The translations under genes and the position numbers were made by a program. From NCBI GenBank assembly GCA_013373085.1, contig JABXIM010000146.1, forward strand, positions 1-32,697: 32,697 nt of DNA. Direction: 5' to 3'. Below, one piece after another: positions 4,308 to 29,859 of this stretch. The notes below the pieces were generated by a model. The model did no database searches, was not told the DNA's origin, and saw only the letters and a program-made list of their open reading frames with translations. The stretch comes from Oceanospirillaceae bacterium. GTDB taxonomy: Bacteria > Pseudomonadota > Gammaproteobacteria > Pseudomonadales > Balneatricaceae. Position 1 is the stretch's first letter; each line of letters opens with the position of its first letter.

Positions 4308-4319
4308 GAGTAAATCCCT

Positions 4320-7780: not shown

Positions 7781-7794
7781 CATCACTCCTTGAT

Positions 7795-9000
7795 TTACAC
7801 GGTCAGTTCGCCGCTCATAAGTTTGGGTAGCTGCAGGTCGCGGGCTTGGGAGAGCTTGCTGTTCTTAAGCAATAAAGTTTTAATTTGATTAAAAACCGGC
7901 TCACAAAAATCTTGAAATTCATCTAACAAACTGTTACTCGGAATAATCACATACATTGACTCAAACTTAGCCTTATTAACATTAGGCATAGTTGCTCCAC
8001 CGCCTATCGCTAGGAGTTTTGGCCTAAAGTCTTTCAGTGTGAAGTAGGAGTAATAAGTAAGGAATTTGTCCTTTGGTACTACTGCGTTTATTTGCTGATT
8101 GGTCTGACACTCAAACGCGTTTAGAGATACAACTCCTAACTTTGCTCCAATACAGGCAACTAAAACCGAATTGGGTGGTAACGTTTTATTCTTTTGGGAA
8201 TTCGCCCCTTTTTCAGACAAGTATTCTGACGGAGACAAAACAATTGAAGAGTCGTGCATATCTGGCGTTTTTATGAATGGTAGGTAATCCCCAAAGTTAG
8301 CTGAGTCTTTTGTTGATGGTGTTTTTCCAGTAATTACTAAACCTAAATCCCGCACCTTGGCTCGCTCCCACCCCTCCGGCACACCATCGGTAATCTTGAC
8401 TTGCTCATGACCGGGGAAGCGCAGGTGAACAAACCATTCCTGATACAGCAGGCGAGCGGATTCTTCCAGCAACTGAATGCGGCGGCGGTTGTTTTCGATG
8501 AGGTCGTCGTAGGTCGCGATAGAGTCGGCAATTCTCATCTGCTCTGTTACGTCGTCTGGCACCAAGAATTTCAATGCCAGCAGCTTTGCCTGACTCAGAT
8601 TATCCTGTGCGGCTCCTTGCGTGAATTGCCGATACTGCAACTTCAATACAGCATCAAAAAGGTATTTTACAAAACGGGCATCTGCTTTCTCTGGATCAGG
8701 GATAAACCCTATTACGCTATCAGGAAAACAGGCATCAATAGCCAGAATGGATGTATCTGCAATATTTGCGGCGATCGTTATACACAGAGTACCAACCGGC
8801 CATAACTTACTTTGAGCAAGCCCTTCTTCACTATAAGTTTGAGAGTAATCTGTTAAATACAGCCCCGCGTGCTTAACATCTCCTGTTTGCACAAACGGAT
8901 ACTGGCCACCATACAAGTGAGCGGCATCTCTTGGCCTGTGCCTGGATCGACCTCTAGATACAAACCCAAGCTGATCTAATGACTTTTCAGACCAGCTCAT
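7795..9000 (-). CDS. hsdS: Type I restriction-modification specificity subunit HsdS
   Basis: This 401-aa protein has two target-recognition domains, roughly residues 1-150 and 210-370, each followed by a long helical spacer (ending ARLLYQEWFVHLRFPGHE, and at the C terminus QLPKLMSGEL). These spacers are the conserved dimer and HsdM contacts. It sets the DNA sequence that HsdM methylates and HsdR cuts. The start codon overlaps the hsdM stop (ATGA), giving coupled translation. The stretch coding for the second recognition domain (about 7870-8340) is visibly more AT-rich than the spacers and hsdM, as expected if recognition domains are swapped by recombination. Both recognition domains look intact; the target sequence cannot be read from the protein. 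Confidence 0.93.
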   Translation of the reverse strand: MSWSEKSLDQLGFVSRGRSRHRPRDAAHLYGGQYPFVQTGDVKHAGLYLTDYSQTYSEEGLAQSKLWPVGTLCITIAANIADTSILAIDACFPDSVIGFIPDPEKADARFVKYLFDAVLKLQYRQFTQGAAQDNLSQAKLLALKFLVPDDVTEQMRIADSIATYDDLIENNRRRIQLLEESARLLYQEWFVHLRFPGHEQVKITDGVPEGWERAKVRDLGLVITGKTPSTKDSANFGDYLPFIKTPDMHDSSIVLSPSEYLSEKGANSQKNKTLPPNSVLVACIGAKLGVVSLNAFECQTNQQINAVVPKDKFLTYYSYFTLKDFRPKLLAIGGGATMPNVNKAKFESMYVIIPSNSLLDEFQDFCEPVFNQIKTLLLKNSKLSQARDLQLPKLMSGELTV

Positions 9001-11138
9001 ACCCCCAACTCCTCAAAGTTACGGACAATCTTTTCTGCCAACTCTACCGCTTCGGCATTTAAACCTTGCAGCTCAATATGGATATCACGCAGGGCTTCTT
9101 CAAAGTCGAACTCTTCATCCACCTCTTCCGGCGCTACACCCACATAGCGGCCAGGCGTCAGGCTCCAGTCGGCGGCTTCAATGTCTTTGATGTCTACCAG
9201 TTTGACCAAGCCTTCCACATTACGTAGCTTGCCTTCCGGGAAGCGGCTTAATAACCAATGGGCTTGCTTGTAGAAGTAGCGTACTTGTTTAATTTGTTCC
9301 ACGGCAAGCTTGCGGGCTTCATCGGCGGTTTTCTTTAAATTGCTACGGCCACGACCATTTAACAGCGTGTTATCCCAGAATTCGCTGTCTTTGGCGTCAT
9401 TGGCTTCGGCCAGTTCAATTACGCGGGTTGCCAACTTATAAGCCAGGTCGATTTCTTTGATCAGGTTTCGACTTTGTTCAGCAAGGTCTTTCAGGCAGGC
9501 ATCTTTATCGATAAAGTCGAGCAGGCTGGCTGCATCGTTATAATCGTTTTCATTCCACCATTTCTGCAGGTCGTTGGTCAGGATTTGAAACGCGGACCAA
9601 CCGCCTTCGACCGAGCCCTTGGCATTGAGGAAGTCAACATAGGGCTCAACATTCACGCCGTCTTGCTCCAGCTTGTCCATGAAAGGTTGAAAGGCTTGGC
9701 TGAATTTTCCCAACTGAGCTACAAAGTCTGGTATCGGCTCGCAGGCTAACGCCTCAGATTGTTCACAGGAGCGAGCTTCAAAAATTGACTTGTCGATATA
9801 CTGCTGCACCAGCTCAACAAAACGCTCGCCTTCGCCACGGTATAGCCAGACCACGGCAGTCAGGTTCTGTTGCTGCTCGGGGCTGAAGTCGTAAATCTTG
9901 CGGGTTACTTTGCGGTAGACATTGCGAGCATCCAGCATTAACACTTTATCTTTCAGATTTGCAGGCTTGTTTTTATTCAGAAACCACAACTGGCACGGCA
10001 CCGATCGCGTGTAAAAGAAATTGCCACGAATATCGACCATGATGTCCACATGACCGGTTTTGACTAACTGCTCGCGCACCTTGGCTTCGTCCCGCCCGGC
10101 GCTGGAGGCCTGAGATGACATGACAAAACCGGCTCGGCCCGTATCGTTCAGATAGCTATAAAAGTACTGAATCCACAGATAGTTAGCGTTGCTGACTTTT
10201 TTGTTTTTATTCACGCCAGGCAAACCAAATGGCAAGCGACGTTTATCCCCTTTGATTTTGTCGGCGTCGACTTCATCAACGTTAAAAGGCGGGTTGGCCA
10301 TCACATAGTCGACAGTGCCGAACAGACCTTCGTGAGGGTCGTTGTAGTAGGTAATGGCGGCTTCACCACCTTCCACATTGCCTTCCAGGCCATGCACCGC
10401 CAGGTTCATTTTGGCCAGGCGTGTGGTAACGCGGTTTTTCTCGTGCCCGTAAAAAGTCAGCTCGTGCGGGTCTTGCGCGTGACGCTCCATAAAATGGGCG
10501 CTTTGCACGAACATGCCGCCAGAGCCACAAGCTGGGTCAAAAATTTTACCGTGGTCGGGTTCAATCACATTAACCAATAACTGCACTAACGAGACCGGCG
10601 TGAAAAATTCACCACCATCGTGTGCGCCCTGGTCGGCAAACTGGGTAAGGAAGTATTCGTAGATGCGGCCAAAGATATCGCCTGTAGCCTTCTTTAACTC
10701 TTCCGGATTCAGGGTTCTTAGAAGAGTCCCCAATACTTCGTTGGGAATGTTGTTGTATTCCTGCTTTGGCAGCTGATTACGCAGGTTGGTGTAATCGGCC
10801 TCAATAGAATCCATGGCATGAATAATGGCTTCGGCGCGATTATCGGCATCCGTCAGGGCTATGAGGTAGTCAAACTGAGCTTCGGGCTTGAGATAGATGG
10901 CGCTCTTTTTAGAAAAGTCTTCTTTGGTGAGCTCACGGGTTTTGCCACCACGACTGGGCAGGGTGGCGACAATCTCGTCTTTCACCGATAGATAGCGGCT
11001 GTAGGCATGGCGTAGAAAGATCAGCCCCATTACCGGCAAAAAGTATTCGTTGCTGGCCAGCTCGGAGTTAGCGCGTAAGGTATCAGCCGATTTCCACAGG
11101 CGTTTTTCAATTGCTTCGATGTTTTCCAGTTGTGCCAT
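8997..11138 (-). CDS. hsdM: Type I DNA adenine methyltransferase HsdM
   Basis: This 713-aa N6-adenine methylase modifies host sites and forms the core of the RM complex. It has an N-terminal helical HsdM domain, the AdoMet motif FDPACGSGGMF near residue 203 and catalytic NPPF near 283. At 713 aa it is longer than many HsdM proteins (about 500); the extra C-terminal half is helical and charged. An odd 13-residue stretch (ARSCEQSEALACE, DNA 9737-9776) is encoded by a palindrome and looks like an in-frame insertion of a repeat. The gene starts 13 bp after the HTH gene stop and overlaps hsdS by 4 bp. Translation appears uninterrupted, so it should be functional. Confidence 0.94.
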   Translation of the reverse strand: MAQLENIEAIEKRLWKSADTLRANSELASNEYFLPVMGLIFLRHAYSRYLSVKDEIVATLPSRGGKTRELTKEDFSKKSAIYLKPEAQFDYLIALTDADNRAEAIIHAMDSIEADYTNLRNQLPKQEYNNIPNEVLGTLLRTLNPEELKKATGDIFGRIYEYFLTQFADQGAHDGGEFFTPVSLVQLLVNVIEPDHGKIFDPACGSGGMFVQSAHFMERHAQDPHELTFYGHEKNRVTTRLAKMNLAVHGLEGNVEGGEAAITYYNDPHEGLFGTVDYVMANPPFNVDEVDADKIKGDKRRLPFGLPGVNKNKKVSNANYLWIQYFYSYLNDTGRAGFVMSSQASSAGRDEAKVREQLVKTGHVDIMVDIRGNFFYTRSVPCQLWFLNKNKPANLKDKVLMLDARNVYRKVTRKIYDFSPEQQQNLTAVVWLYRGEGERFVELVQQYIDKSIFEARSCEQSEALACEPIPDFVAQLGKFSQAFQPFMDKLEQDGVNVEPYVDFLNAKGSVEGGWSAFQILTNDLQKWWNENDYNDAASLLDFIDKDACLKDLAEQSRNLIKEIDLAYKLATRVIELAEANDAKDSEFWDNTLLNGRGRSNLKKTADEARKLAVEQIKQVRYFYKQAHWLLSRFPEGKLRNVEGLVKLVDIKDIEAADWSLTPGRYVGVAPEEVDEEFDFEEALRDIHIELQGLNAEAVELAEKIVRNFEELGV
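9737..9776. repeat. Palindromic REP-like insert inside hsdM
   Basis: GCTCGC at 9737-9742 is matched by GCGAGC at 9771-9776, and an inner AGGC/GCCT hairpin follows the left arm. The 40-bp unit is in frame and codes for a Ser/Glu/Ala/Cys-rich peptide unlike its surroundings. Short palindromic repeats inserted in frame within genes are known in several bacteria. Whether this one is repeated elsewhere in the genome cannot be told from this window. Confidence 0.4.
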
Positions 11139-11150
11139 GGGGCCGGATTC

Positions 11151-11375
11151 CTAGTTATCTTCTGATTGACTGTTTGCTGATTTCATTGCTTCACTGACAC
11201 CGGCGCGGTTGTGCTGGGCCGCGATGTACTGCTCCAGCTCGCTGTGTTTGAATCGCCAGGAGTTACCCACTTTAAAGCCCGGTAGCTCACCATTTGCGGC
11301 CAGACGGTATATGGTCCGTTCATTCACCTTGAGGTAATCGGCCACGTCTTTGATGGTCAATATGGGGTCACTCAT
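11151..11375 (-). CDS. Small helix-turn-helix (excisionase/MerR-type) protein leading the hsd operon
   Basis: This 74-aa protein consists mainly of a winged-HTH of the excisionase type: TIKDVADYLKVNERTIYRLA, then GELPGFKVGNSWRF, which is the typical helix-turn-helix plus wing. The last 20 residues are polar and probably disordered. It is the first gene of the defence operon, 13 bp before hsdM. Proteins of this type either regulate transcription or help excision. At this position it most likely controls the hsd operon. It is unlikely to serve the integrase at 13777, which has its own excisionase-like partner. Confidence 0.85.
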   Translation of the reverse strand: MSDPILTIKDVADYLKVNERTIYRLAANGELPGFKVGNSWRFKHSELEQYIAAQHNRAGVSEAMKSANSQSEDN

Positions 11376-11425
11376 GACGAGATATCTCAGCTATGTCGGT
11401 GGTGTCGAAAAAGTACAATGTTGTC

Positions 11426-11453
11426 AATATATAGGACCTGAGAGAGAGATCAA
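11426..11453 (-). promoter_or_regulatory. Candidate sigma70 promoter for the hsd operon
   Basis: On the minus strand, TTGATC (11448-11453) and TATATT (11426-11431) are separated by 16 bp and point into the HTH-hsdM-hsdS operon, about 50 bp before its first ATG. It lies in the only gap (11376-11471) between this operon and the upstream PIN gene, where a promoter would be expected. The match is by eye. Confidence 0.4.
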
Positions 11454-11471
11454 GTAGAACGGTTTTCAGGC

Positions 11472-12023
11472 TTATTGGTCGCCAAACAGGCGCTGATAGT
11501 CGGCCTTGAAGTTGGCAGGCATGTCTGAAAAGTACTTCCAGAACTCGACTAGGCCATTGATGGTCTTCATGTCTGTATGGCCACAGTCCAGCATGATTCT
11601 GAGCAGCTCTAAGGTTGGCATGACCTGCGCATCGAAGGCTTTGGCCAAATCAGTCATATCCTGATCGTCCGTCACCACCGGTACACCCAACTCCAATGCA
11701 TAGGCGATATACCAGGCGTCTACACGGGACGGCCCGGGCAGTTCAGTTTGTACATGATCCCAGACGTATTCGAAGGTTTGCTGAATGGACTTCTTTTGTT
11801 TTTTGCCGATTTGGGGGAAGTGTTTGCGATTCTCGGCGAATTCCTCGTCATCCACCCAAGGGAACTTACTTTGAAGTTTCCTACCAGCGAGCTCGTCATT
11901 GAGTTCAGGCAGAATGTACAGGCAATACTCGTTGTCACCAAAGGGCACAAACAGTAAGGGGCGTACGGTTTTGGCCAACCTTAGGTAGGCGTTGGTATCA
12001 ACGAGGATTTTCGATTGCGGCAT
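11472..12023 (-). CDS. PIN-domain protein, probable ribonuclease toxin
   Basis: This 183-aa protein has the acidic set of a PIN nuclease: Asp9 in ILVDTNAYL, Glu40 or Glu44 in LPELNDEL, Asp102 in SRVDAWYIAYAL, and Asp119/Asp120 in VVTDDQDM. PIN proteins cleave RNA using metal ions held by these residues. It is longer than classic VapC (about 130 aa) because of an insertion around residues 45-90 and a C-terminal tail. The start overlaps the stop of the HTH-ImmA gene (TGATG), so the two are co-translated. The upstream partner would be the antitoxin or regulator. The toxin role is inferred from this pairing. Confidence 0.75.
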   Translation of the reverse strand: MPQSKILVDTNAYLRLAKTVRPLLFVPFGDNEYCLYILPELNDELAGRKLQSKFPWVDDEEFAENRKHFPQIGKKQKKSIQQTFEYVWDHVQTELPGPSRVDAWYIAYALELGVPVVTDDQDMTDLAKAFDAQVMPTLELLRIMLDCGHTDMKTINGLVEFWKYFSDMPANFKADYQRLFGDQ

Positions 12024-13168
12024 CAGGTCAACTCTGCGTGGATACTCCGTGCATCGAGGAGTGGCATATCCAGCACAGTTTGAACAAAGCCCGGCCCCTT
12101 ATCGTGCTCTTTCAGGTATTTCCGGAGCAAGTCGAAAAATGGGGTTTCGAAAGCACCTTCTGCCTTTTCAATATAGTCACGGGCGCTTGGGTGGCCGTGT
12201 TCGTCGAGCTCGGTATTGCCAAACAAGGCTTCGCTGAGGTTCTTATACTTTTTATTGAAGTTGGTCACCGCACCAGGGAAAGCCGATTTGCTGAGCTGTA
12301 TTTGAGACTGCCCTGCTGACTCGGCATATTTATTCACCTGCCCAATCACGGTCCAAGGCGATATGGTTAACTGATCAGCCAAACCGATGACATGTGCAAT
12401 TTTGGCCGCAGGAGAGACTTGCGACATGATTGAGGCGTATGCCTGCTTCGCCAAGTCATGAGGGTAAAGCAAGCTCGCGGCGAACGCATCGGCAAAATCT
12501 TCAGCATCATCACCCTCAAGGCTTGGCGAGAGACAGTGCCCCAACTCATGTGCCATCCAGAACTTGAAGTCATGGATATTGGTATCCAGATTCAGGTAAA
12601 CCCAAGTACTACCCGAGTCAGGGAGGTGTATGTGCACCGCATTTTCATGACGCTGCTTTGCCCCCCACATAACTGGGACCACAACGGCCTGTAATTCACT
12701 AAAGCGGCGAATCAAATGCGTGAAATCTACGCACTCCACCGGACCAAGATTAATACCTTCTCTGACTTTCGCTGTTACCGTGCGGAGGTAGTCATAATCA
12801 CAGCTCGGCGACTTAAGTACCGGCGGCATTTCAAAGGTGTCAAACGGCAGGTAGGGCACGAGGTGACGCAAAAAGCGACCAATCTCTTGCGCTTTTTCGA
12901 TATGGTGAGCCTTGGTTTTGGTACCGCGCATCTTACGGAATGCCACTTTCGGGGCGTGCGGATCTTCCTTGATGACCAAATCATCAAAAGCAAGATTTAG
13001 CAACTTGCCTAACTGAAGTAGCTTATTGGGGCGTGGAAAAGATTTGTGCAAAAGCCACTGGGAAACGGCTTCTTTGGTTACGCCTAAAGCATCAGCGACG
13101 GCAGTTTGGGTTAACCCTGCCCTATTGATCGCCTGCTGTGCTTTATCTGTATCTAGTCTTTTTTGCAT
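12023..13168 (-). CDS. HTH (XRE) - ImmA/IrrE metallopeptidase regulator
   Basis: About 381 aa. Residues 8-62 form an XRE helix-turn-helix (LTQTAVADALGVTKEAVSQWL). The C-terminal half is an ImmA/IrrE zinc peptidase with intact HELGH near residue 208 and a downstream acidic helix (DDAEDFADAFAASLLYP) that supplies the third ligand. Proteins of this build repress a toxin operon and can cleave a partner regulator. An upstream TTG at 13192 is possible, but the ATG at 13168 sits 6 bp after a strong -10 box, so I prefer it. The PIN gene follows directly. Autoregulation is likely because a direct repeat (ACTTGAC twice) overlaps its promoter. Confidence 0.85.
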   Translation of the reverse strand: MQKRLDTDKAQQAINRAGLTQTAVADALGVTKEAVSQWLLHKSFPRPNKLLQLGKLLNLAFDDLVIKEDPHAPKVAFRKMRGTKTKAHHIEKAQEIGRFLRHLVPYLPFDTFEMPPVLKSPSCDYDYLRTVTAKVREGINLGPVECVDFTHLIRRFSELQAVVVPVMWGAKQRHENAVHIHLPDSGSTWVYLNLDTNIHDFKFWMAHELGHCLSPSLEGDDAEDFADAFAASLLYPHDLAKQAYASIMSQVSPAAKIAHVIGLADQLTISPWTVIGQVNKYAESAGQSQIQLSKSAFPGAVTNFNKKYKNLSEALFGNTELDEHGHPSARDYIEKAEGAFETPFFDLLRKYLKEHDKGPGFVQTVLDMPLLDARSIHAELT

Positions 13169-13174
13169 GCGCGA

Positions 13175-13202
13175 AGTATAAGCAGCAGTCAAGTTTTGTC
13201 AA
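13175..13202 (-). promoter_or_regulatory. Strong sigma70 promoter predicting a leaderless mRNA
   Basis: Minus strand: perfect TTGACA (13197-13202), a 16-bp spacer and TATACT (13175-13180). The ATG at 13166-13168 begins only 6 bp after the -10 box, so transcription would start at or within a base or two of the start codon. The direct repeat ACTTGAC-AAA-ACTTGAC covers the -35 and spacer and may be an operator. Confidence 0.65.
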
Positions 13203-13222
13203 GTTCCGTATAACACAAGCCA

Positions 13223-13550: not shown

Positions 13551-13784
13551 ATGTCACAAACTTATCTCACCACCCAAGAACTATCTGAGCGTATCAAATA
13601 CGATACTCGTACTATCCGTGAACGATTAAAGGATTCTGTGCTGCTAGAAGGAGTCCATTATTTTCGCCCATTTGGTGGTCGCAAAATCCTTTATATCTGG
13701 GAGGCTATTCAAGCAGACATGTTCAATAACATGCCTTCTAGCTTGGCGATTCCTATGGCAAACGGAGGTGTTTGTCATGGCTAG
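13551..13784 (+). CDS. Excisionase-like small DNA-binding protein
   Basis: This 77-aa protein has a winged-HTH opening (YLTTQELSERIKYDTRTIRERL) followed by the wing HYFRPFGGRKILYIWEAI, as in small excisionases and helpers encoded just before integrases. I start at the ATG at 13551, with AGAGGA 8 bp upstream; an ATG at 13542 overlaps that site. Its stop lies inside the first codons of the integrase, so the two are translationally coupled. Such proteins bend DNA to favour excision and often regulate the integrase. Confidence 0.8.
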   Translation: MSQTYLTTQELSERIKYDTRTIRERLKDSVLLEGVHYFRPFGGRKILYIWEAIQADMFNNMPSSLAIPMANGGVCHG

Positions 13785-14976
13785 TGTTCGCTCGCGAAAG
13801 GGCAGCAATAAGCTGTTTATGGATTTTCGGTATCGCGGCCAGCGATGCCGAGAGCTTACGGCTTTAGAAGATACGCCCGCTAACGTTAAAAAGCTCGAAG
13901 CGCTACTTAAAAGAATTGAAGCGGAAATCACTCTGGGGTCATTCGATTATGCCAAGTACTTTCCTGGTAGTGCGAACATCGCCAAGTTTCATCAACCTGA
14001 CCTAGGCACTTTAAGCTCTGAATCCTCCAAGCGCGGAAAGTCGACCCTGTTTAAGGATTTCTGTGAGGTGTGGTTTGGTGAAATGGAGTCCAGCTGGCGC
14101 CGGTCTTATCGCTCGACGGTTCGGGGGATTCTAGACCGCCAACTCATCCCTGAATTTGGCGATCTAGAAGTCAGTCAGATTAGCAAAGCAGATCTACTTC
14201 AATTCCGTGCGTCCCTCGCCAAAGTGAAACACGGAGATAAAGTGGGTTTCTCACCAGATCATATTAATCGCCACATGAAGATCATGAGGATGATTTTGAC
14301 TGAAGCCTCTGACCGCTTTGATTTTACGTGCCAGTACCGAAACATCAAACCTTTAAAGGTCCCTAAGACAGATGTTGATCCTTTTACCTTAGAAGAAATC
14401 CAACTCTTTCTTAAACACATCCGTCCAGACTTTAAGGATTACTTCACGGTGCGCTTTTTCACAGGGATGCGAACCGCTGAAATCGATGGTCTGAAATGGC
14501 GCTATGTGGATTTTGAACGCCGACAAATCTTGATTCGTGAGACCTGGGTTAAGGGGTTTGTGGAATACACCAAAACCGACGGTAGCCAGCGTGAGATCGA
14601 GATGTCTCAGCCTGTTTACGATGCCTTAAAACATCAGTATTTGGCCACTGGAGAACAGGAGTATGTGTTCTCCACCCTAAGTGGTGCGCCCCTTAGTAAC
14701 AACAATGTGACCAAGCGTGTGTGGTACCCGATGCTTGCTCATTTGGATTTACGCAAACGCCGCCCTTATCAAACCCGCCATACCGCCGCCACCTTATGGC
14801 TTGCCAGTGGTGAAAGCCCTGAATGGATTGCTCGCCAAATGGGGCACGCCAATACCGAAATGCTGTTCCGAGTGTATAGCCGATATGTGCCTAACTTAAC
14901 CCGCCGAGATGGTTCGGCCTTTGAGCGGTTATTAACCAGCAATTTTAATAATGAGGGGGCCGAGCATGCCGAATAA
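13777..14976 (+). CDS. int: Tyrosine-family integrase of the island
   Basis: 399 aa. The N terminus (MASVRSRKGSNKLFMDFRYRG) is the short arm-binding domain (DUF3596 type) common in gammaproteobacterial island integrases. A core-binding helical domain covers about residues 85-190. The catalytic domain has Arg in TGMRTAEIDGL near residue 231, Lys in KTDGSQRE near 266, the box PYQTRHTAAT (Tyr in place of the first His, as I recall for this family), MGH, and the nucleophile Tyr in RVYSRY near 365. GGAGG precedes the ATG at 13777. It probably recombines in the tRNA-Arg anticodon arm. Unusually, it lies in the middle of the window and not beside the tRNA, which hints at rearrangement or nested elements. 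Confidence 0.92.
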   Translation: MASVRSRKGSNKLFMDFRYRGQRCRELTALEDTPANVKKLEALLKRIEAEITLGSFDYAKYFPGSANIAKFHQPDLGTLSSESSKRGKSTLFKDFCEVWFGEMESSWRRSYRSTVRGILDRQLIPEFGDLEVSQISKADLLQFRASLAKVKHGDKVGFSPDHINRHMKIMRMILTEASDRFDFTCQYRNIKPLKVPKTDVDPFTLEEIQLFLKHIRPDFKDYFTVRFFTGMRTAEIDGLKWRYVDFERRQILIRETWVKGFVEYTKTDGSQREIEMSQPVYDALKHQYLATGEQEYVFSTLSGAPLSNNNVTKRVWYPMLAHLDLRKRRPYQTRHTAATLWLASGESPEWIARQMGHANTEMLFRVYSRYVPNLTRRDGSAFERLLTSNFNNEGAEHAE

Positions 14977-15262
14977 AACACTTGAATCTGTATTGGAAGA
15001 ACAAACAAAAGCCAAAGCACAAAAACGTGAATTCAGGATGTTAGCCACATTATTGGCCCATCAGTTTCATGTGTCCGTAGGGGATCACCTTGTCCCTATG
15101 ATTGGCAGCGGCACTGAACAAAATAACATCGAAGCCATTGCCTACTGGCTGGCCCAGCATGGTCATTACATAGAGGAGGCTAAAACCACCAAACTAGACC
15201 CTTTAAACCAACTGCATAATGAGCTGAACAAGCAGCTATTACGCTTAGAGATCGGGGGCTGA
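14966..15262 (+). CDS. Small protein of the integrase operon, unknown function
   Basis: This 98-aa protein is charged at the N terminus (EEQTKAKAQKRE) and otherwise helical, with no motif I recognise. The start ATG at 14966 overlaps the integrase end by 11 bp and has GAGGGGG about 6 bp upstream. It ends 2 bp before the next gene. It is thus part of one coupled operon from the excisionase gene to 16119 and may assist integration or island maintenance. Confidence 0.7.
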   Translation: MPNKTLESVLEEQTKAKAQKREFRMLATLLAHQFHVSVGDHLVPMIGSGTEQNNIEAIAYWLAQHGHYIEEAKTTKLDPLNQLHNELNKQLLRLEIGG

Positions 15263-15264: not shown

Positions 15265-16119
15265 ATGCCTCGTTACCTGTTGAATGTGTTCAACCTGCTG
15301 ATGCTCATAATGAGCATCAGCCTTATCCAGTGGCATTCAATCCAGTTTTGGATTGCTCATACCGGCAATATCGGTATCGCCTGGTCTCTCACCTTAGAAA
15401 TGGCCTGCATGTGGCTTTGGTGGCAAAACCGAAAACGCGTGGCTTTTGTCACCAGCTTGTTAGTCATAGCGGGGCCTATCGCATTTCAGGTATTACCTGT
15501 TATCGAAACGCTGGATCGAAATAATTTCGACGTATCAAAACACGCGGCAATGCTTGAGGCGGGTCATCGAAATATTTCGCAATTGGAACAAGCTCTTGAT
15601 TCCTACCTTCGAAATAGTGAAGAACGACTTGGCTGGGCAACCCGAATAGACGAAACACAGGCTGAAATCGAGCAAGCCAGGTCTGATCAACTCCGCTTGA
15701 TACAAGCCTCTCCCGCTGAAATTCATATTTCGAACGCTTTCGTAACCGTTTCGATTCAGGTTCTGGCCATTTCGATACTGTTCTTAACGCAGATATTAGT
15801 GATTGCACAATTTCGAAGTCTTTCAGCTGATCGAAATAATGTCGAAATACCTGAAATTATCGAAATCGATGTGGTGGCATCCGATGATGATTTCGAAGGG
15901 GAAGTCGAAAGAGTTTCGAAATGGCTTTTCAGCGCAATTCAAGAATCGGGAAAGACACAAGCTCAATGGGCTAAAGAGCATGGAATTTCAGCTAAGAGTA
16001 TTTCCTTACTGAAACACCATCAGACTCGAAAGAGCGAAGGGAAGGAATGCATATCGAGAAATGATCTCAGACACATATCAGAACAAATGCTCATAAAAAA
16101 TGACCCGCAATCAATCTGA
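15265..16119 (+). CDS. Membrane protein with coiled coil and C-terminal HTH-like domain
   Basis: This 284-aa protein has hydrophobic segments near residues 5-22, 36-53, 58-80 and 155-183. A charged, probably coiled-coil region lies between the third and fourth (about 95-145). A cytoplasmic tail follows, containing a helix-turn-helix-like segment (KTQAQWAKEHGISAKSISLL, about 230-250). This suggests a membrane-tethered DNA-binding protein, as in ToxR-like or replication/partition anchors, but I recognise no family. The gene carries two unusual DNA features: a perfect 25-nt palindrome at 15297-15321 and at least 17 TCGAAA/TTTCGA hexamers from 15503 to 16031. Its last 9 bp overlap the convergent gene at 16111. 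Confidence 0.75.
   Translation: MPRYLLNVFNLLMLIMSISLIQWHSIQFWIAHTGNIGIAWSLTLEMACMWLWWQNRKRVAFVTSLLVIAGPIAFQVLPVIETLDRNNFDVSKHAAMLEAGHRNISQLEQALDSYLRNSEERLGWATRIDETQAEIEQARSDQLRLIQASPAEIHISNAFVTVSIQVLAISILFLTQILVIAQFRSLSADRNNVEIPEIIEIDVVASDDDFEGEVERVSKWLFSAIQESGKTQAQWAKEHGISAKSISLLKHHQTRKSEGKECISRNDLRHISEQMLIKNDPQSI
15297..15321. repeat. Perfect 25-nt palindrome (12-bp arms, 1-nt centre)
   Basis: GCTGATGCTCAT, one A, then its exact complement. It begins 30 bp after the start codon of the membrane-protein gene and would form a very stable hairpin in mRNA or extrude in DNA. Confidence 0.8.
15503..16031. repeat. Dense array of TCGAAA / TTTCGA hexamers
   Basis: Copies start at 15503, 15516, 15525, 15567, 15609, 15728, 15749, 15770, 15811, 15831, 15842, 15860, 15891, 15905, 15914 (the double TTTCGAAA) and 16026. 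Chance would give well under one copy of either hexamer in 530 bp. Copies occur in all three codon phases (as CGA-AAT, ATT-TCG and GTC-GAA), so amino-acid choice alone does not explain them. This suggests sites recognised at the DNA level. Confidence 0.7.
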
Positions 16120-16500
16120 TTTTTTCATTATGGCAGCAGTGACCAGCGCCCCGAGTGCTGCAGCTCCAATCATAGCTGCACCTCCACCAGATTTCTTTTC
16201 GGCTGGAGCTACCTTCATTGAGCGAACAGTGACACCTTGAGACTTTAAGGCGTAAATAGCTTGTTCTGCCTCGCTCATAATCACGCTAGCATTAATGTTC
16301 AATGCCTCCGCAGCAATTATTAACTGCTCAACTGAAAGAGCACTCTCGCCTCGTTCAATTTTTGACCAAGTCGACTGAGTTACACCGACAGCAGTAGCCA
16401 TAGATGCCTGTTCCATACCCATCTCTTTTCGTATTTTCACAATAACTCGGCCAATAACTGATTGAATAGTCGTTTCTGGCTTCAATTGGTCTATTGACAT
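16111..16500 (-). CDS. XRE-family regulator with C-terminal membrane anchor
   Basis: 129 aa. Residues 17-72 form an XRE helix-turn-helix (EMGMEQASMATAVGVTQSTW, then SKIERGESALS). A short linker with Lys-Lys-Ser-Gly-Gly-Gly leads to a single hydrophobic segment (AAMIGAAALGALVTAAIM) ending in KKSD, which should anchor it in the inner membrane. It is convergent with, and overlaps by 9 bp, the membrane HTH-like gene. An inverted repeat at 16540-16562 upstream may be its operator. No good ribosome site precedes the ATG at 16500. Confidence 0.75.
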   Translation of the reverse strand: MSIDQLKPETTIQSVIGRVIVKIRKEMGMEQASMATAVGVTQSTWSKIERGESALSVEQLIIAAEALNINASVIMSEAEQAIYALKSQGVTVRSMKVAPAEKKSGGGAAMIGAAALGALVTAAIMKKSD

Positions 16501-17057: not shown

Positions 17058-20000
17058 TTAAAACGTCATACTGCATATCATGGACATGATAAAACTGTAA
17101 CGTTGAGCTAACCCTGAATGGCCTGATGTAGGATCGACAAGCTTGAACCCTAGCCAACCATTTTTTCCCATTGATACTCCATCTGTACCTCGAGTAAGCT
17201 GGAGTGGGTTATTGGTGGAAAAATCGAGCTGTTTCATCCAAGCCTTAAGCGATTTCTTAGCGTCATTATCGACCATAGATTGGCCAACGATCACACTAAA
17301 TTTCAACCAGTTTTCTGGTATTCCAAGCATTGAAAATAGTGCAATAAAGTTATTTGCTGTCTTGCTATCTTTGAAAACAACTAAATACTTTGTAGACCAT
17401 GCATTATTGATATATAAGTCCATCAAAGATCTATAATAATCATAATTCGTTTCCTTAAATTCATACAACCTATCACACAATTCTTTTGCCATTTCTATGT
17501 CATAACCATCAGTAGGCCGTGCTGGACATAAAAGTGCGTTATAACAATCAAATTTATCTTTATACTTCATCATTTTAAATTTTGGACTAGAATTTCTATC
17601 TTTTGAAGTAAAGGATAACAATTGATTGACGTTATTAATCAGCAAAGCAAATTCATTTTCTGTAATTTTGAAGCGATCCAAGAGATCCGTTTTTTCAATA
17701 TCTCTAGCTGAATATAAAAATAATAACTGCCAAGCATCTTTATAGATTTTATATCCAGAAAGTTTATGGCAATCTAAAGTAATTTTATTATTTATACGAA
17801 CATTATGTGAAATCGGGACGAATCCATTTACTATTCTTATTTTATTTAATAGTTTAAATGGTGAATCTAAAAATAATCGATACGCTGTTGATTGGGGCAA
17901 TTTAGATGCCGATATCAGTATATTCTTATTTGCTTTAAATCGATTTGAAATAATTTGTGAAGATATGATGTCAAGTGTGTGAATATAATGCTCTAAAGTC
18001 ACACTAGGAGATGAGTGCCCAAGTAAGAATGCAACTTGATATAGATGTCGACGAGTAAGCTCACTTCTAGAATAAAGCGAATCTCTAAACTCCTTGCTTT
18101 TTTCAAGCCACTTCAATGTATCAGCTTGATGATCAAATATTCCTACAGGAACGCCATGGTCAGCCACCATAAGTCTCAAAAGTGTTAATGAGGCGAAACT
18201 ATGCCTAAAGTGATGATACCTAAGTGAATCATCTCCAGTAGTTGCTCTCATGGCTGAATGTATGACTGGAAAAACGAGATCTTCCGAGATACAAACATAG
18301 TTCTTATCAGGTATTGAAAATAGATATTGTGAAAATGGATTAGTTTCCTCTTCTATTTTACGATCTTTCAACCATTCCTTTAATATTTCTAATTCATCCG
18401 CTTCAAGCAATACAGATAATGGTAAAACCCTTTTAGATGAGGCTGTTTTTAATCGTCTGTATTTAAATGGCCGTACCAACAACATAGGGTCACGAACGCC
18501 ATAGATATCAATCAATCTAAGTTTTAATGCTTCGCTACGTCGCAATCCACACCTGTATCCAAGAATTGCCAATAGCTTAGTCGCTGTAACAAGCTTAGGG
18601 TGATTTAGGATTAGATCAGAATCTTCTATAACTTGAAGTAGTTGATTAAATTCATCTATGAGTAAGATATTGGCATCAACTGGCGTAGGTCCATAGCTAG
18701 CACCAAGAACGGATCTATAATCTATTTCAGCAACATCATGATTATTTACAAGGAACTTATGAAAGCTGTATAACTGTTGGGAAAGTTTTTTTCTTAAGCC
18801 TTTAGAATCTATATCTTCTAGAAGCTCTAGATATATATCTTCTATTGTTCCAGTGTCTAGATCAATTAACCGCTCATCACCTAAACACTGATATAATCGA
18901 TTGCCAATAAGCCTAATATACCCTTTCACCGTATCGGCTTTAGGTGAATGTTTTCCTCTATTTAATAAGCTTTTCCCCCACTCAAAAAGAAGTATCAATA
19001 AGTCGTTTTCATCTTCAAGCATTGAAATTTTCGCATCTAATTCAAATTTCATCGCCTCCTTAGATAAACCAGAAGGAAGAGTTGGTAATTTAGGCAATAT
19101 TTCACCATGCTCTTTTTCATATTTAAAATCATCCTCATTTAACGCTGGCGAAGAAGTCCATCTCTCCAGTGATATGTCTTCAATAATATCCTGAGTGTTT
19201 AATTTAGGGTCAACCGATTCGATACGATTCCATCCCAATTGTCGAATCGAATGGGATAAATGCTTTCGCTGACAATAATTGGATATAAAAGGAGGTAAGA
19301 GTAAATCAAACTTAAGCGATACCGTATCCAAGAATGCGGAGATACTGGTTGGATGATCAGCTTTACCTAACCCAGCTTCTCTAAAAAACGATAATATATA
19401 CTTGAAAGTTACTTTGGTGAATTGGGTTTGATTAAATGTTGAGTAATCCACTATAACAGGCTGATTTTTATTTTTAATCCAAATCAAAATTTCTGTCAGA
19501 GGATCCATAAACCAACGGCGGCTTTCTGAACCTTGATGTCCAAGCCAAGATAACGATAAATCAAAATAGGCCCTATTATTAAAAATACTTGGTAATGAAT
19601 TCATCATTTTTAGCAATCCGGCTAAAAGGCTGGTACTTAGCAGACCACCATAAACGATTGATGATACGAGTATTTGTCCAATTTTAGCTTCTTCGCTTAA
19701 AGATATATCATATAAAATTGAGCTGTCTAATGTGTATCTCCATTTCTCGTAACAAGGTAGTGATGAAAATCTCTTGGGGGTAAATATTCCTTTCTCCCTA
19801 GCAGCTAAAATGGGAATATTAGGAATAGGTAAATCCCATATTTCGCTTTCATTACCTTTAATTACTAGATGACGAAGAACTGTTATTTGTTTATAGGCTT
19901 CATTTAAATTTTTAGGTTGGTCATTCACAATACGAAGTGTTAACTGATCGAAGTCGCAACTAGTAGGCTTTCGTTTCACATCTATTAGATACATTGATAG

Positions 20001-20135
20001 TAATGATCCAGAGGTTTTCAGCCATTGAATCAAATTTAATAATGAGTCGTTAAAGTCAAGACCTAATGAATCTTGAACTTGAAGCCAAATAGGTATCGTC
20101 TTATCTGATAAGCCTTCAAATTCAGCCATATTCAT
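17058..20135 (-). CDS. Large tyrosine recombinase (third gene of a recombinase trio)
   Basis: 1025 aa, far longer than ordinary integrases (about 400). A tyrosine-recombinase catalytic domain lies around residues 500-720: Arg in GYRCGLRRSEALKL near 530, Lys in FKYRRLKTASSKR near 565, HHFRH near 641, LLGHSS near 707 and the nucleophile Tyr in LEHYIH near 717. All catalytic residues are present. The long N-terminal region and about 300 C-terminal residues match nothing I know. The start overlaps the previous stop (ATGA). Context suggests it is the active recombinase of a mobile element, possibly of the gamma-mobile-trio or Tn554-like class. The whole operon is notably AT-rich. Confidence 0.85.
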   Translation of the reverse strand: MNMAEFEGLSDKTIPIWLQVQDSLGLDFNDSLLNLIQWLKTSGSLLSMYLIDVKRKPTSCDFDQLTLRIVNDQPKNLNEAYKQITVLRHLVIKGNESEIWDLPIPNIPILAAREKGIFTPKRFSSLPCYEKWRYTLDSSILYDISLSEEAKIGQILVSSIVYGGLLSTSLLAGLLKMMNSLPSIFNNRAYFDLSLSWLGHQGSESRRWFMDPLTEILIWIKNKNQPVIVDYSTFNQTQFTKVTFKYILSFFREAGLGKADHPTSISAFLDTVSLKFDLLLPPFISNYCQRKHLSHSIRQLGWNRIESVDPKLNTQDIIEDISLERWTSSPALNEDDFKYEKEHGEILPKLPTLPSGLSKEAMKFELDAKISMLEDENDLLILLFEWGKSLLNRGKHSPKADTVKGYIRLIGNRLYQCLGDERLIDLDTGTIEDIYLELLEDIDSKGLRKKLSQQLYSFHKFLVNNHDVAEIDYRSVLGASYGPTPVDANILLIDEFNQLLQVIEDSDLILNHPKLVTATKLLAILGYRCGLRRSEALKLRLIDIYGVRDPMLLVRPFKYRRLKTASSKRVLPLSVLLEADELEILKEWLKDRKIEEETNPFSQYLFSIPDKNYVCISEDLVFPVIHSAMRATTGDDSLRYHHFRHSFASLTLLRLMVADHGVPVGIFDHQADTLKWLEKSKEFRDSLYSRSELTRRHLYQVAFLLGHSSPSVTLEHYIHTLDIISSQIISNRFKANKNILISASKLPQSTAYRLFLDSPFKLLNKIRIVNGFVPISHNVRINNKITLDCHKLSGYKIYKDAWQLLFLYSARDIEKTDLLDRFKITENEFALLINNVNQLLSFTSKDRNSSPKFKMMKYKDKFDCYNALLCPARPTDGYDIEMAKELCDRLYEFKETNYDYYRSLMDLYINNAWSTKYLVVFKDSKTANNFIALFSMLGIPENWLKFSVIVGQSMVDNDAKKSLKAWMKQLDFSTNNPLQLTRGTDGVSMGKNGWLGFKLVDPTSGHSGLAQRYSFIMSMICSMTF

Positions 20136-22660
20136 ATAAATCTACTTTTTATTGGCTTAAACTTTAATTCTTCTAATATTTCCTCAATATAAACTTTTAA
20201 TACATCAATAATATCTACGACTGCAAGAGATGAATATTTACCCCAAGGCTCTTGTCCTCTGGACCAGTGTCCCATAAATGCATTGACTATTTCAGAGGGG
20301 CATCCGCGAGCTCGTAATTCTGTTCTTAGAAAGCGTCGATTTACATTTATCGGAAGGGGTAAATGATCTTTTAAAAGTGGAGATAGTGTTGAGGGCCTAA
20401 TATCATTAATACGATAATCATCCTCTAACAAAAATAATCTAGGTATGCTTTTTTCTTCTTGATTTAAAACAAGATAAGGGTGTCGACTGACAACACTCAA
20501 TAGAATTTTATCCCTATGCTGCATATAGTGATCTATTTGTTTTCGTACTGATTTAGGCACCCAAACAATACGGCTATTATAATAATCTTCACCGTCTTTA
20601 TCTGAAACAACCGCTAAACCTGTACTATCATCAATCTCAGAATCAATTGGAAAAGGATCAACTACTGCTCTATAGCCTGTTGAGTAGCTTATAAATAATA
20701 TTGTGTATAATGTATACCAATTATGATATTTAATAATCGCTGCATTGTACTCTTCATTTGGTTTACGTTTGATTTGTTCTTGTATCTTTATTACTAAATT
20801 CTCGACTGCATCAATAGTCGGACAAAGATTACTACCGACCACATGAGTAGATCTTATCTTTTCTGCTACTACCTTTGGAGCTTCACAAATATATCCTTCA
20901 GAATAGATACTAGAGATCACGTCTGATATAGCGTTAAGGTAAATCCCTTTGAGTCGCTCCTTATCCGGTGACGTATAATGCAGTAAAGTCTGTCCTAACG
21001 GGTGGTACCTACCAGTGATTAAAATGGCATCTGCTATATCACCTTCATGTTCTGTAGCGATTTTGTAAAATAAGTATCGTGATATCTTAAATTCATTTAA
21101 TCTGTGATCATGTTTAATATCACTTAAAAAATTGTTAAGTTCTTTTCTATATGTTGTTAGCTTTCTATTAAATAACCGATTCTTCGTATCGGAAAGGCGA
21201 TCATTCGGAAAAGCTTTAATGATATAAAGGCCAATTCGAAAAGGATCAGGTAACTCTAAGTGTTTATCTTTAACCCTACAGTATGATTTTTCTTTTTTCG
21301 TATTTACCCGCTTAGTATTTGGAACATGTGGTGAAATTAACCACTCACCTATATTACTATCTTCATTAAATTTATAACCCAGTATATCTTGACCCAACCG
21401 TTCATTTGACCCTAACCATCTAAATTTAGACTTAACAGATTTGATATCCGAGCCAGTCCACAGCATAATCATAACCATCGCAATCACTTCTAACCGAAGA
21501 TCCGTTGCATTCTCATCTCTTACTTGTTCACCACAAGCTTTCATCAAAATGGTAAGCTCATATACCGTTGCTTGTGTCCACTGATTGCGAAACATCTGAT
21601 TAGACATGATCACATGTCGTACTTGTGATCTTGTGAATAACCTGCCGGCTTTTTTATCCTTATTATTAATTAGTATTAAGTCTTCGTCGCCCTGGTTTTC
21701 GGAGGGGTCTAAATCCAAATCAAAAAATTCTTTGTGTCTCTCCTCATCTCCTTGAAACGGGCTAATTATTGTCAATGAGGAATCCTCTAAATCTTGTTTC
21801 TCATTTGATTGTCCCGAACCAAAACGAATGAAACCATCTGACCACCCATGAAATAATCGTTTATATCCCCCTCCACCCCCTCCTTTTTTTAGTTTCAAAC
21901 CTCGCAAACCTAAACCGAGTTCAAGGTAGCTACGTAGTACTCTCTTAGATTTAGGCTCAAGGTTTCCAATACTACTCATTGAATTTATAAGAGATTTAAA
22001 ATCTGACAAATCCAATAAATCACCCGGATTATTCCCCATTAGACTGTAATCACGCATAATCTTACTGGCATTTACTCCTGATGAAGTAGAACGGCCTAAA
22101 TAGCCACTTTCTGATTGATTTAATAGATAAGATTGAATATTGGATTTACTCACAACAAGTAAAGAATGCGAAAGAAAAACATAGCCTTGGAGTACTCGAT
22201 ATTCTTGTTGAATCTCAATATCCTCTGACTCATGGGAATTCATGAGCATCGCATATATATAATAATATTTAAATTTTCTACGCATGGGGTGTATCAACCC
22301 CCCATGTATTCCTTCATCAAATCTTTCTATTTCTTCACCAAAATACTCCAAAATTTCATCTTGATTTGTAAGTAAATGGTTAACAATTTTTTCCATAGAT
22401 TTTATATCAATCTCTTTTTCCTTTAATTCATCGATGAATTCAGATTCTAAGCGTTCTGAAAACTCTAAAAACACCTCACTTAAAGAATGTACAATATGGA
22501 AAAAATATCGAAGGTCATGAGGAGAATGAATAAAAGATAGTAATTTCACTAACAACATCTGAGATTCCCAACGTGTAAATTCGTCCTGGGGATTCTCACC
22601 AATCCAGTTAATGAGCTTTTCCACTTTAGTGCCAAGTACAGCCGATTGATTATTTTCCAC
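20132..22660 (-). CDS. Tyrosine-recombinase-like protein with altered catalytic box (second gene of the trio)
   Basis: 842 aa with a C-terminal recombinase-like fold: Arg in YSTGYRAVVDPF near residue 662, RRFLRTELRA near 777 where the usual HxxR has Arg for His, MGHW near 797 and Tyr in GKYSSL near 807. The Arg, the second His and the Tyr remain, so activity is possible but not assured. The first 600 residues are helical and unrecognised, with a Gly-rich run near 265. The start is GTG at 22660 with AAGGTG 4 bp upstream, overlapping the preceding gene by 11 bp. It probably forms a complex with the 1025-aa partner. Confidence 0.75.
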   Translation of the reverse strand: MENNQSAVLGTKVEKLINWIGENPQDEFTRWESQMLLVKLLSFIHSPHDLRYFFHIVHSLSEVFLEFSERLESEFIDELKEKEIDIKSMEKIVNHLLTNQDEILEYFGEEIERFDEGIHGGLIHPMRRKFKYYYIYAMLMNSHESEDIEIQQEYRVLQGYVFLSHSLLVVSKSNIQSYLLNQSESGYLGRSTSSGVNASKIMRDYSLMGNNPGDLLDLSDFKSLINSMSSIGNLEPKSKRVLRSYLELGLGLRGLKLKKGGGGGGYKRLFHGWSDGFIRFGSGQSNEKQDLEDSSLTIISPFQGDEERHKEFFDLDLDPSENQGDEDLILINNKDKKAGRLFTRSQVRHVIMSNQMFRNQWTQATVYELTILMKACGEQVRDENATDLRLEVIAMVMIMLWTGSDIKSVKSKFRWLGSNERLGQDILGYKFNEDSNIGEWLISPHVPNTKRVNTKKEKSYCRVKDKHLELPDPFRIGLYIIKAFPNDRLSDTKNRLFNRKLTTYRKELNNFLSDIKHDHRLNEFKISRYLFYKIATEHEGDIADAILITGRYHPLGQTLLHYTSPDKERLKGIYLNAISDVISSIYSEGYICEAPKVVAEKIRSTHVVGSNLCPTIDAVENLVIKIQEQIKRKPNEEYNAAIIKYHNWYTLYTILFISYSTGYRAVVDPFPIDSEIDDSTGLAVVSDKDGEDYYNSRIVWVPKSVRKQIDHYMQHRDKILLSVVSRHPYLVLNQEEKSIPRLFLLEDDYRINDIRPSTLSPLLKDHLPLPINVNRRFLRTELRARGCPSEIVNAFMGHWSRGQEPWGKYSSLAVVDIIDVLKVYIEEILEELKFKPIKSRFI

Positions 22661-23159
22661 TAAGCACCTTCGGGTTAATCTTCAGAGCCTTCGAATATGC
22701 AGATTTACTGTCACTCATATTTAATACTTTATATTTACTATTTTTTCTTACTAGTCTCCATACCTTATATAACCACGGCAGAATGGGGCTCTTACTTGGT
22801 TTAGTTTGAATTAATTGACTGCTAAGCAGTTCTGCTATTATCAATCGATCAAGTTGATCACCGCGTCTCCCTTCGTAAAATCTAACGGGAATAAATGTTT
22901 CCGAAAAAAGCTGATTACATGCAATCCTGTAATTGTAGATACCAGCGATGCAGTAGTTTTGATTTCTATACCTATGAAGCGTGATTGGAAATAAGGCAAT
23001 TGCATCAAGAAGAGCAGAATCTTCAAATGGCAGGTTGTAGCCAGAAGGTAGGTCGGCTCCAACATCATTGAATATTTGAATAATATTCGGGTGGATACCT
23101 TTAATATCTCCCAACTTGATGAATTTTACATCGCTTAATTTCAAGACGCTCCCTTTCAT
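22650..23159 (-). CDS. ParB-like small protein (first gene of the recombinase trio)
   Basis: 169 aa from the ATG at 23159, which follows the purine run GGGGAGGGGAGG; a longer frame to 23219 lacks support. Residues about 57-115 (FPITLHRYRNQNYCIAGIYN, then YRIACNQ, then FIPVRFYEG) resemble the N-terminal ParB/sulfiredoxin fold, where the pattern is a pI/V-hR-Y-aG-R-Aa-iPV series. The canonical ERR box is not present. The C-terminal 50 residues are basic. As the leader of an overlapping operon with two recombinases, it may be the DNA-binding accessory factor that guides them. The ParB resemblance is my reading and needs a profile search. Confidence 0.65.
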   Translation of the reverse strand: MKGSVLKLSDVKFIKLGDIKGIHPNIIQIFNDVGADLPSGYNLPFEDSALLDAIALFPITLHRYRNQNYCIAGIYNYRIACNQLFSETFIPVRFYEGRRGDQLDRLIIAELLSSQLIQTKPSKSPILPWLYKVWRLVRKNSKYKVLNMSDSKSAYSKALKINPKVLSGK

Positions 23160-23242
23160 CCTCCCCTCCCCAAAAAGAAAGCACAATAAAAGCGTAGTGC
23201 AGTATCTGCTAGTCAGCAAAAAGACTCTAAGTTTCCCTATAA

Positions 23243-25177: not shown

Positions 25178-25441
25178 ATGATAAACCTTGATTTATCCAC
25201 ATTACCATCCGATGATGAGCAGCTGATCAAGCAAGGCTTCTCTCTCTCCGGATCTAAAACCATCGAAGTATTCGCAATTCAAGCAATGATTAATGAATCT
25301 ACAAGATTGCATCAAGATGCGAATAATACAACTCTAACTACTGAGGCTTATGAACGCTTTGTTAAAGCTTGTGAACACCCTGGTGAGCCCAATGAAAAGC
25401 TGAAAAACGCATTTAAAAGATGTAACACTTTTACAAAATAA
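25178..25441 (+). CDS. DUF1778/TacA-like antitoxin
   Basis: 87 aa. The N-terminal half (DLSTLPSDDEQLIKQGFSLS, then GSKTIEVFAIQAM) has the spacing of the ribbon-helix-helix domain of DUF1778 antitoxins. The C-terminal TTEAYERFVKACEHPGEPNE closely follows the toxin-binding tail of that family (usual form: L-s-x-E-a-F-x-x-f-l-x-x-L-d-x-P-x-x-P-N-x-x-L). DUF1778 antitoxins normally pair with GNAT acetyltransferase toxins; here the next gene, 32 bp away, is a HipA kinase. A ribosome site, GGAG, lies 6 bp before the ATG. Confidence 0.65.
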   Translation: MINLDLSTLPSDDEQLIKQGFSLSGSKTIEVFAIQAMINESTRLHQDANNTTLTTEAYERFVKACEHPGEPNEKLKNAFKRCNTFTK

Positions 25442-25473
25442 TGCTAAGTAATCTTTAGAGAGGGGCTTTAGGC

Positions 25474-29770: not shown

Positions 29771-29859
29771 ATCTTTTCTAATTAATGATTTAATTTTATA
29801 TACTAAAATGGACTATATAATATATGCTATATATCTTCTTGTCATATAAAATAAAGTAA

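What the first reader, a model, noticed from the sequence alone, without database searches (positions are those of the whole stretch)
15503..16031. Cluster of TCGAAA/TTTCGA motifs inside a membrane-protein gene
At least 17 hexamers (both orientations, one as TTTCGAAA) occur in about 530 bp, where random sequence would give under one. They appear in all three codon phases, so protein composition does not explain them. Neighbouring genes of the same operon lack the cluster. Possible roles: binding array for the encoded HTH-like tail or the membrane XRE protein (self-tethering of the excised island to the membrane), a partition or replication site, or a regulatory array.
Basis: partly seen in the sequence, partly recalled or inferred. 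Interest (0 to 1): 0.75.

Follow-up and report, generated by a model that had tools for sequence, protein, structure and literature searches.

The report
Membrane protein gene carrying DNA address
A mobile-element gene for a predicted membrane-anchored DNA-binding protein has a dense set of one short DNA word written into its own coding sequence, and distant relatives in phage-like contigs keep that word at mostly different positions, which suggests that the protein binds its own gene and ties the element's DNA to the membrane.

Summary
In detail: 17 TCGAAA/TTTCGA in 529 bp of gene 15265-16119, against about 0.4 per 530 bp in a sample of the host genome; TCGAAAT occurs 12 times here and nowhere else in the window. 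Protein sequence plus codon use explain about 5 of the 17. The gene, third in an integrase operon, encodes a predicted four-helix membrane protein with a coiled-coil hairpin and a C-terminal helix-turn-helix (HTH) tail. Of 19 tailed genes compared (window included), 11 hold at least 5 copies of CGWAAY; 0 of 16 tail-less relatives do (maximum 3). A hexamer ranking without the window puts CGTAAC, CGAAAC and TCGAAA among its top four. A contig found by HTH tail alone then proved to carry 12 sites. Seven loci with related integrases but no such membrane gene found show no array. Best explanation: the sites are bound by the protein's own HTH, a self-encoded membrane tether, perhaps for replication or maintenance. 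Binding and function are inferred; 8 of 19 tailed genes lack the word, and a related integrase accompanies 7 of 11 carriers.

The parts
15265..16119 (+). Gene of a 284-aa membrane protein with C-terminal HTH tail; carries the array
   Evidence: ORF list; AlphaFold2 model mean pLDDT 89.4, helices 3-33, 36-54, 57-118, 125-147, 155-191, then five helices in 207-274; membrane helices read from sequence and model, no TM predictor run; no Pfam family
15503..16031 (.). Array: 17 TCGAAA/TTTCGA; 18 CGWAAY sites at 15504-15922
15504..15656 (.). First group of CGWAAY sites (gene positions 240-387), in codons of the hairpin between TM3 and TM4
   Evidence: mapped on the model
15727..15922 (.). Second group of CGWAAY sites (gene positions 463-653), in codons of TM4, the disordered linker and the start of the HTH domain
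   Evidence: model
15883..16086 (+). Codons of the HTH domain (residues 207-274), presumed DNA reader
   Evidence: model; weak profile hits (TIGR04111 E 0.016, phrog_2339 E 0.056); profile of 12 relatives against PDB chains: DBP48 E 0.002, 'ATP-dependent target DNA activator B' E 0.07
14951..15262 (+). 103-aa protein upstream, conserved in the island of genome G449 (63% identity), no array
   Evidence: no family; 1 CGWAAY site
13672..14976 (+). Tyrosine integrase (Arm-DNA-bind_2 + Phage_integrase), first gene of the operon (start codon uncertain), no array
   Evidence: 2 CGWAAY sites
16111..16500 (-). Convergent 129-aa XRE protein with a hydrophobic C-terminus (read from sequence); not shown to belong to the system

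Best explanation
The cluster is an array of binding sites, word YCGWAAY (here mostly TCGAAAT), written into the coding sequence of the protein that most likely reads it. The protein sits in the inner membrane by four helices and holds a cytoplasmic HTH; bound to about 18 sites in its own gene, many copies would tie the element's DNA to the membrane next to where the protein is made. In phages this would serve membrane-linked replication, in the island maintenance of the excised circle. Shown here: the array, its excess over chance, its recurrence in many tailed relatives with mostly different positions, its absence from the tail-less relatives examined. Inferred: binding by the own HTH (about 0.65), membrane tethering (about 0.5), use in replication or maintenance (about 0.4). 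The first figure and the overall odds were lowered slightly after searches showed that a related integrase accompanies most carriers.
For: Excess beyond protein and codon use. CGWAAY at 5 or more in 11 of 19 tailed genes, p<=0.05 by codon permutation in 10 of 19; 0 of 16 tail-less genes reach 5. Ranking of all hexamers over 16 tailed relatives without the window: CGTAAC, CGAAAC, GCCAGC, TCGAAA on top; GCCAGC is also high in tail-less genes. 82 neighbouring ORFs: 1 at p<=0.001, the primase next to the gene in L079. Prospective case: L136, found by HTH tail only, has 12 sites, all CGAAAY as its HTH type predicts, p=0.0002. The base before the core is a pyrimidine in 63 of 78 in-gene sites of nine relatives but in 60 of 118 same hexamers elsewhere in those loci. 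Non-RPAD HTHs go with CGAAAY 52:4, RPAD HTHs 16:24. L136 and L077, 48% identical, have 12 sites each, few at the same column. Seven loci with integrases 39-54% identical to the window's but no membrane gene found have no array (densest 600 bp holds 2-5 sites). Predicted fold.
Against: No binding was measured. 8 of 19 tailed genes (L002-L004, L013, L071, L096, L100, L105) lack CGWAAY and show no clear word of their own. A relative of the window's integrase lies in 7 of 11 carriers (window, L012, L076, L077, L079, L089, L136) and in none of the 24 non-carrier loci searched, so the array also goes with that integrase; in G883 the second cluster of sites overlaps the integrase gene (8 sites). Tail loss is one or two events on a tree with weak deep branches. 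In G887 (L089) another stretch holds more sites than the gene (6 against 5); G883 and G885 have second clusters of 8. L006/L012 hold only 5 and 7 sites. No helical phasing of spacings. Tail classes were set by eye and the HTH-type split was made after seeing the motifs, except for L136.
Confidence: 0.48

Rival explanations
1. The array is a replication origin inside the initiator gene, as oriλ lies inside the λ O gene; the protein is an initiator or helicase/primase recruiter held at the membrane.
For: Phage-like relatives sit near or next to primase genes (L075, L076, L077, L079, L080, L089) or among recombination, SSB, clamp and helicase genes (L090); λ precedent (passages of PMC4488673 and PMC5043065).
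Against: No AT-rich stretch flanks the sites consistently in nine genes (single 80% AT bins in L075 and at the end of L080); no replication family was found in the window proteins scanned with Pfam; sites are short and unevenly spaced, unlike the 19-bp λ repeats.
Confidence: 0.19
2. The array is regulatory: the membrane HTH protein or another element repressor binds inside the gene to block its transcription (autoregulation).
For: Sites inside a transcribed gene; HTH tail weakly similar to phage regulator families.
Against: In the window the sites start about 240 nt into the gene, not at the promoter; a roadblock would not need up to 18 sites; membrane anchoring is left unexplained.
Confidence: 0.17
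3. The word is read by another element protein, above all the arm-type integrase, or by a host factor, not by the own HTH.
For: A relative of the window's integrase lies in 7 of 11 carriers and in 0 of 24 non-carrier loci; integrases with arm domains bind repeated sites (recalled); the second cluster of G883 overlaps its integrase gene.
Against: Seven loci with closer relatives of that integrase (39-54%) but no membrane gene found have no array (in L063 and L068 the integrase lies at a contig end). L090 (40 kb searched) has 7 sites and no integrase family hit, L075 has 6 sites and no relative of the window's integrase. The word shifts with HTH type. Carriers span 30-61% GC.
Confidence: 0.14
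4. By-product of codon use or local composition.
For: Codon permutation keeps about 5 of 17 hexamers; CGA is the commonest arginine codon of the gene.
Against: 0 of 5000 permutations reach 17 (maximum 11); same word in distant relatives; 82 control ORFs.
Confidence: 0.02

Closest known systems
Phage λ O protein and oriλ
   Same: A mobile element's DNA-binding protein whose repeated binding sites lie inside its own gene (PMC4488673, PMC5043065, passages seen)
   Different: λ O binds through its N-terminal half to four 19-bp repeats with an A-T-rich side (PMC4488673 passages); here a predicted membrane protein with C-terminal HTH, up to 18 short sites, no consistent AT-rich side
φ29 p16.7
   Same: Membrane protein of a phage that binds viral DNA and organises replication at the membrane (PMC4974454, passages seen)
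   Different: p16.7 is described there as binding displaced strands/ssDNA and terminal protein; here a sequence word; no sequence link seen
RocS (Streptococcus) and the Par protein said to share domains with it
   Same: One protein with DNA-binding domain, coiled coil and membrane attachment (PMC11500499, abstract and outline; PMC13042908, search listing only)
   Different: RocS has an N-terminal DNA-binding domain and a C-terminal amphipathic helix; here predicted TM helices and a C-terminal HTH
parS inside spo0J of Bacillus subtilis (recalled, no call)
   Same: Cis site inside the gene of its reader
   Different: ParB family; no ParB or ParA domain found here

Membership tests
λ O-type initiator | repeated binding sites inside the own gene | tested here: inconclusive
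   array inside the gene shown; that the own protein reads it is inferred
λ O-type initiator | A-T-rich stretch beside the repeats | tested here: not met
   60-bp AT profile of nine genes: no consistent AT-rich side
λ O-type initiator | initiates replication with a helicase loader | not testable with these tools
   needs experiments
φ29 p16.7 | integral membrane protein with cytoplasmic DNA-binding domain | tested here: inconclusive
   predicted fold and sequence only
φ29 p16.7 | sequence homology to p16.7 | tested here: inconclusive
   no chain named p16.7 among 16 PDB sequence hits at E<=1; whether p16.7 is in that set was not checked
RocS/Par | N-terminal DNA-binding domain, coiled coil, C-terminal amphipathic helix | tested here: not met
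   order is membrane helices, hairpin, membrane helix, HTH in the model
ParABS | ParB/ParA domains | tested here: not met
   no Pfam family in the protein at E<=0.1
anti-phage defence system | match to a known defence protein | tested here: not met
   PADLOC: 0 families for the gene

The most novel reading that the evidence does not exclude
A one-gene DNA-to-membrane anchoring system: the protein is inserted into the membrane while its gene is being transcribed and translated, and its HTH at once grips the address written into that same gene. Gene, reader and address travel as one piece through phages and islands, and word and HTH diverge together, so each element tethers its own kind.
Probability: 0.28. 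Interest if true: 0.85.

Novelty: new variant of a known kind. Interest (0 to 1): 0.7.

Why it matters
If right, an unnamed protein family (no Pfam or PADLOC family, no NCBIfam hit above cut-off, only weak HTH hits) links mobile DNA to the membrane through a DNA address hidden in its own codons. It would give a very small segregation or replication-site module, a clear case of double coding under selection, and a natural set of reader-word pairs for studying how HTH specificity evolves.

Tried and rejected
Halomonas plasmid relatives have 10-12 GCCAGC in the gene, but that word is common in those loci and ranks high in tail-less genes too: not counted as an array. Helical phasing: mean vector 0.10 at 10.5 bp over 129 spacings. 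AT-rich element beside the array: none consistent. Own word in the 8 tailed genes without CGWAAY: best-hexamer p from 0.020 (L003) to 0.82 (L004), inconclusive. The best single-hexamer statistic by gene is weak for most relatives; the shared word needed a named or pooled test. Annotated phages: no relative with three queries. Genome-contig scan with a 3-row alignment: 1 relative. RPAD-tail scan and a last K-type scan gave only contigs already known. The ~95-aa genes upstream of the membrane gene are not one family by phmmer. Rows dropped before counts: L005, L010/L037 (interrupted copies), L078 (copy of L079), L082 (of L008), L087, L088 (of L086), L092, L033 (of L091), L070 (masked stretch and repeats); L006 left out of the pooled ranking as paralogue of L012; L057, L121, L122 weak, not examined. 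The group of 8 was chosen after seeing counts; the 16-gene group was not.

Full report
Observation. All 17 hexamers are present at 15503-16031 and lie in the 284-aa gene 15265-16119. A sample of the host genome (295 kb, GC 61.6%; the window is about 42%) has 0.40 TCGAAA per 530 bp and never more than 3; no hexamer of any kind exceeds 12 in 530 bp there. The better core TCGAAAT occurs 12 times in the cluster, 0 times in the rest of the window and 1141 times in the 5.78-Mb genome. Keeping the protein and shuffling its own synonymous codons leaves 4.8 hexamers on average, never more than 11 in 5000 trials; with neighbouring genes' codon use, 2.1, never more than 10. So a part of the cluster follows from protein and codon use, but not the array.

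What the gene is. It is the third gene of an apparent operon: tyrosine integrase, 103-aa protein, membrane protein. No Pfam, PADLOC or above-cut-off NCBIfam family fits. AlphaFold2 (19-row alignment, mean pLDDT 89.4) gives long helices 3-33, 36-54, 57-118, 125-147 and 155-191, a low-confidence linker near 192-206 and a compact five-helix domain at 207-274. I read four membrane helices from sequence and model; no TM predictor was run. The positive loop NRKR (residues 55-58) puts the C-terminal domain in the cytoplasm (inference). A profile of 12 relatives finds small chains in the PDB at weak E-values (DBP48 0.002, 'ATP-dependent target DNA activator B' 0.07).

Relatives. Close relatives are rare: 1 of 116 genomes of the family, the window's own; 7 of 390 of the order, own included (9 of 381 with a wider profile); 9 of 44 in the family of G449; 4 of 369 of the class, own included; 4 plasmid records; 1 in genome contigs; none in annotated phages. 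Scans of IMG/VR gave 18, 23, 7, 2 and 2 loci, overlapping; one gave none. Genome G449 holds two copies, one with the full integrase-103aa-membrane operon (51%, 63% and 37% identity). Of nine IMG/VR records searched, six have a tyrosine integrase domain; L075 also has portal and terminase genes. In L075, L076, L077, L079, L080 and L089 the membrane gene is near or next to a primase gene, in L090 among recombination, SSB, clamp and helicase genes.

The array is shared. CGWAAY on both strands in the gene, with codon-permutation p: window 18 (0.0002), L006 5 (0.015), L012 7 (0.0006), L075 6 (0.020), L076 10 (0.0002), L077 12 (0.001), L079 8 (0.0002), L080 11 (0.0004), L089 5 (0.06), L090 7 (0.0004), L136 12 (0.0002). 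The other 8 tailed genes (L002, L003, L004, L013, L071, L096, L100, L105) have 0-2. The 16 tail-less relatives have 0-3; one of them, L036, has 3 at p=0.014. Tail or no tail was judged by eye from the translations; whether the tail of L105 is an HTH is unsure. In 82 neighbouring ORFs one reaches p<=0.001, the primase directly after the gene in L079. Ranking all hexamers over 16 tailed relatives without the window puts CGTAAC, CGAAAC, GCCAGC and TCGAAA first; over the 8 with K-type, RPAD-type or similar HTH (chosen after seeing counts) CGAAAC, CGTAAC, TCGAAA; over the 16 tail-less the top four are CCAGCG, CAGCGG, CAGCGC, GCCAGC.

Signs of selection on DNA, not protein. Sites fall in all six codon registers over ten genes. 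Positions are mostly not shared: 52 of 323 site comparisons fall within one alignment column, 37 expected by random placement beyond residue 78 (9 of 500 trials as high), a mild excess; L136 and L077, 48% identical, have 12 sites each with few in common. The base before the core, not used to find the sites, is a pyrimidine in 63 of 78 sites of nine relatives, but in 60 of 118 copies of the same hexamer elsewhere in those loci. In the window the sites start at gene position 240, after the conserved first three helices, and crowd in hairpin and linker codons. In five of six phage-like contigs the densest 600-bp stretch is at the gene; the exception is G887/L089, and G883 and G885 have a second cluster of 8 (three of the six contigs lacked their last 49-1344 bases).

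Reader. Two proteins of the window's operon recur in carriers: the membrane protein itself and, at 25-51% identity, the integrase: 7 of 11 carriers, window included, and 0 of 24 non-carrier loci of 7-18 kb. For the integrase as reader this is a point in favour, and in G883 the second cluster overlaps the integrase gene. Against it: seven loci with closer relatives of the integrase (39-54%) and no membrane gene found have no array, 2-5 sites in the densest 600 bp (in two the integrase is at a contig end); L090 has 7 sites and no integrase family hit in its 40-kb record, L075 has 6 sites and an integrase domain but no relative of the window's integrase. For the own HTH: non-RPAD recognition helices (window, L012, L077, L090, L136) go with CGAAAY 52:4, RPAD helices (L075, L076, L079, L080, L089) with 16:24; sites within a gene are not independent and the grouping was post hoc, except L136. 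L136 is the one prospective case: found with the HTH tail alone, it has the membrane part and 12 of 12 CGAAAY sites; it also has an integrase relative. The tree spreads array carriers over several branches, deep ones weakly supported, and needs 2 changes for the tail-less genes, so loss of tail and array is few events.

Mechanism. I infer that the HTH binds the array and that, because the protein is in the membrane, this ties the DNA to the membrane. The array's place in the own gene makes reader and address inseparable, as in λ, where the origin repeats lie inside the O gene (passages of PMC4488673, PMC5043065). Membrane anchoring of phage replication has a precedent in φ29 p16.7 (passages of PMC4974454), and DNA-membrane linking by one protein in RocS (abstract of PMC11500499). 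I could not separate tethering for replication, tethering for maintenance, and autoregulation. Against an origin of λ type: no consistent AT-rich side and no replication family among the window proteins scanned.

Novelty. Paper searches on membrane-anchored HTH/centromere, sites within the own gene, RocS-like proteins, p16.7, λ O, P2-like membrane HTH proteins and motifs embedded in coding sequence listed nothing that, from titles and abstract starts, describes this family; the library is open-access papers only.

Noticed in passing
17058-23219 (-): Three genes of 1025, 842 and 189 aa, the first with a Phage_integrase domain, resembling the three-integrase GInt islands (PMC5385486, abstract and outline seen); in an Aeromonas record (L072) a relative of the 1025-aa protein also lies convergent to a relative of the window's integrase.
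   Followed up: partly
311-11138 (-): Type I restriction-modification genes with a PsyrTA-type pair between the restriction and specificity genes.
   Followed up: no
11200-13205: HTH protein and PIN-like protein, 92.5% identical at DNA level to a stretch of E. coli plasmid NZ_OX030731.
   Followed up: no
16111-16500 (-): A second small HTH (XRE) protein with a hydrophobic, possibly membrane-spanning C-terminus, overlapping the end of the array gene by 9 bp.
   Followed up: no
whole window: The window is a complete contig (C128 of 249) of about 42% GC in a genome sampled at 61.6% GC: an acquired island or a foreign contig.
   Followed up: partly
L079 6945-9659: Primase gene next to the membrane gene holds 10 CGWAAY where 2.5 are expected by codon permutation, as if the array extends into it.
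   Followed up: partly
L127 372-1436 (contig G883): The integrase gene of this carrier holds 8 CGWAAY sites in 1065 bp; integrase genes of five other carriers hold 0-5. Unexplained.
   Followed up: partly
L070 (genome G605): A relative whose segment after TM4 is encoded by a tandem repeat with 13 CTGTTCC; part of it is masked.
   Followed up: no
25178-26628 (+), 29796-30541 (-): TacA-type antitoxin followed by a HipA-like gene, and a HipA-N and HTH pair on the other strand.
   Followed up: no
15265-16119: CTGAAA occurs 8 times in the gene (codon permutation mean 1.8, 0 of 1000 reach it); the same word is the top hexamer (8) in tailed relative L100. Unexplained.
   Followed up: no
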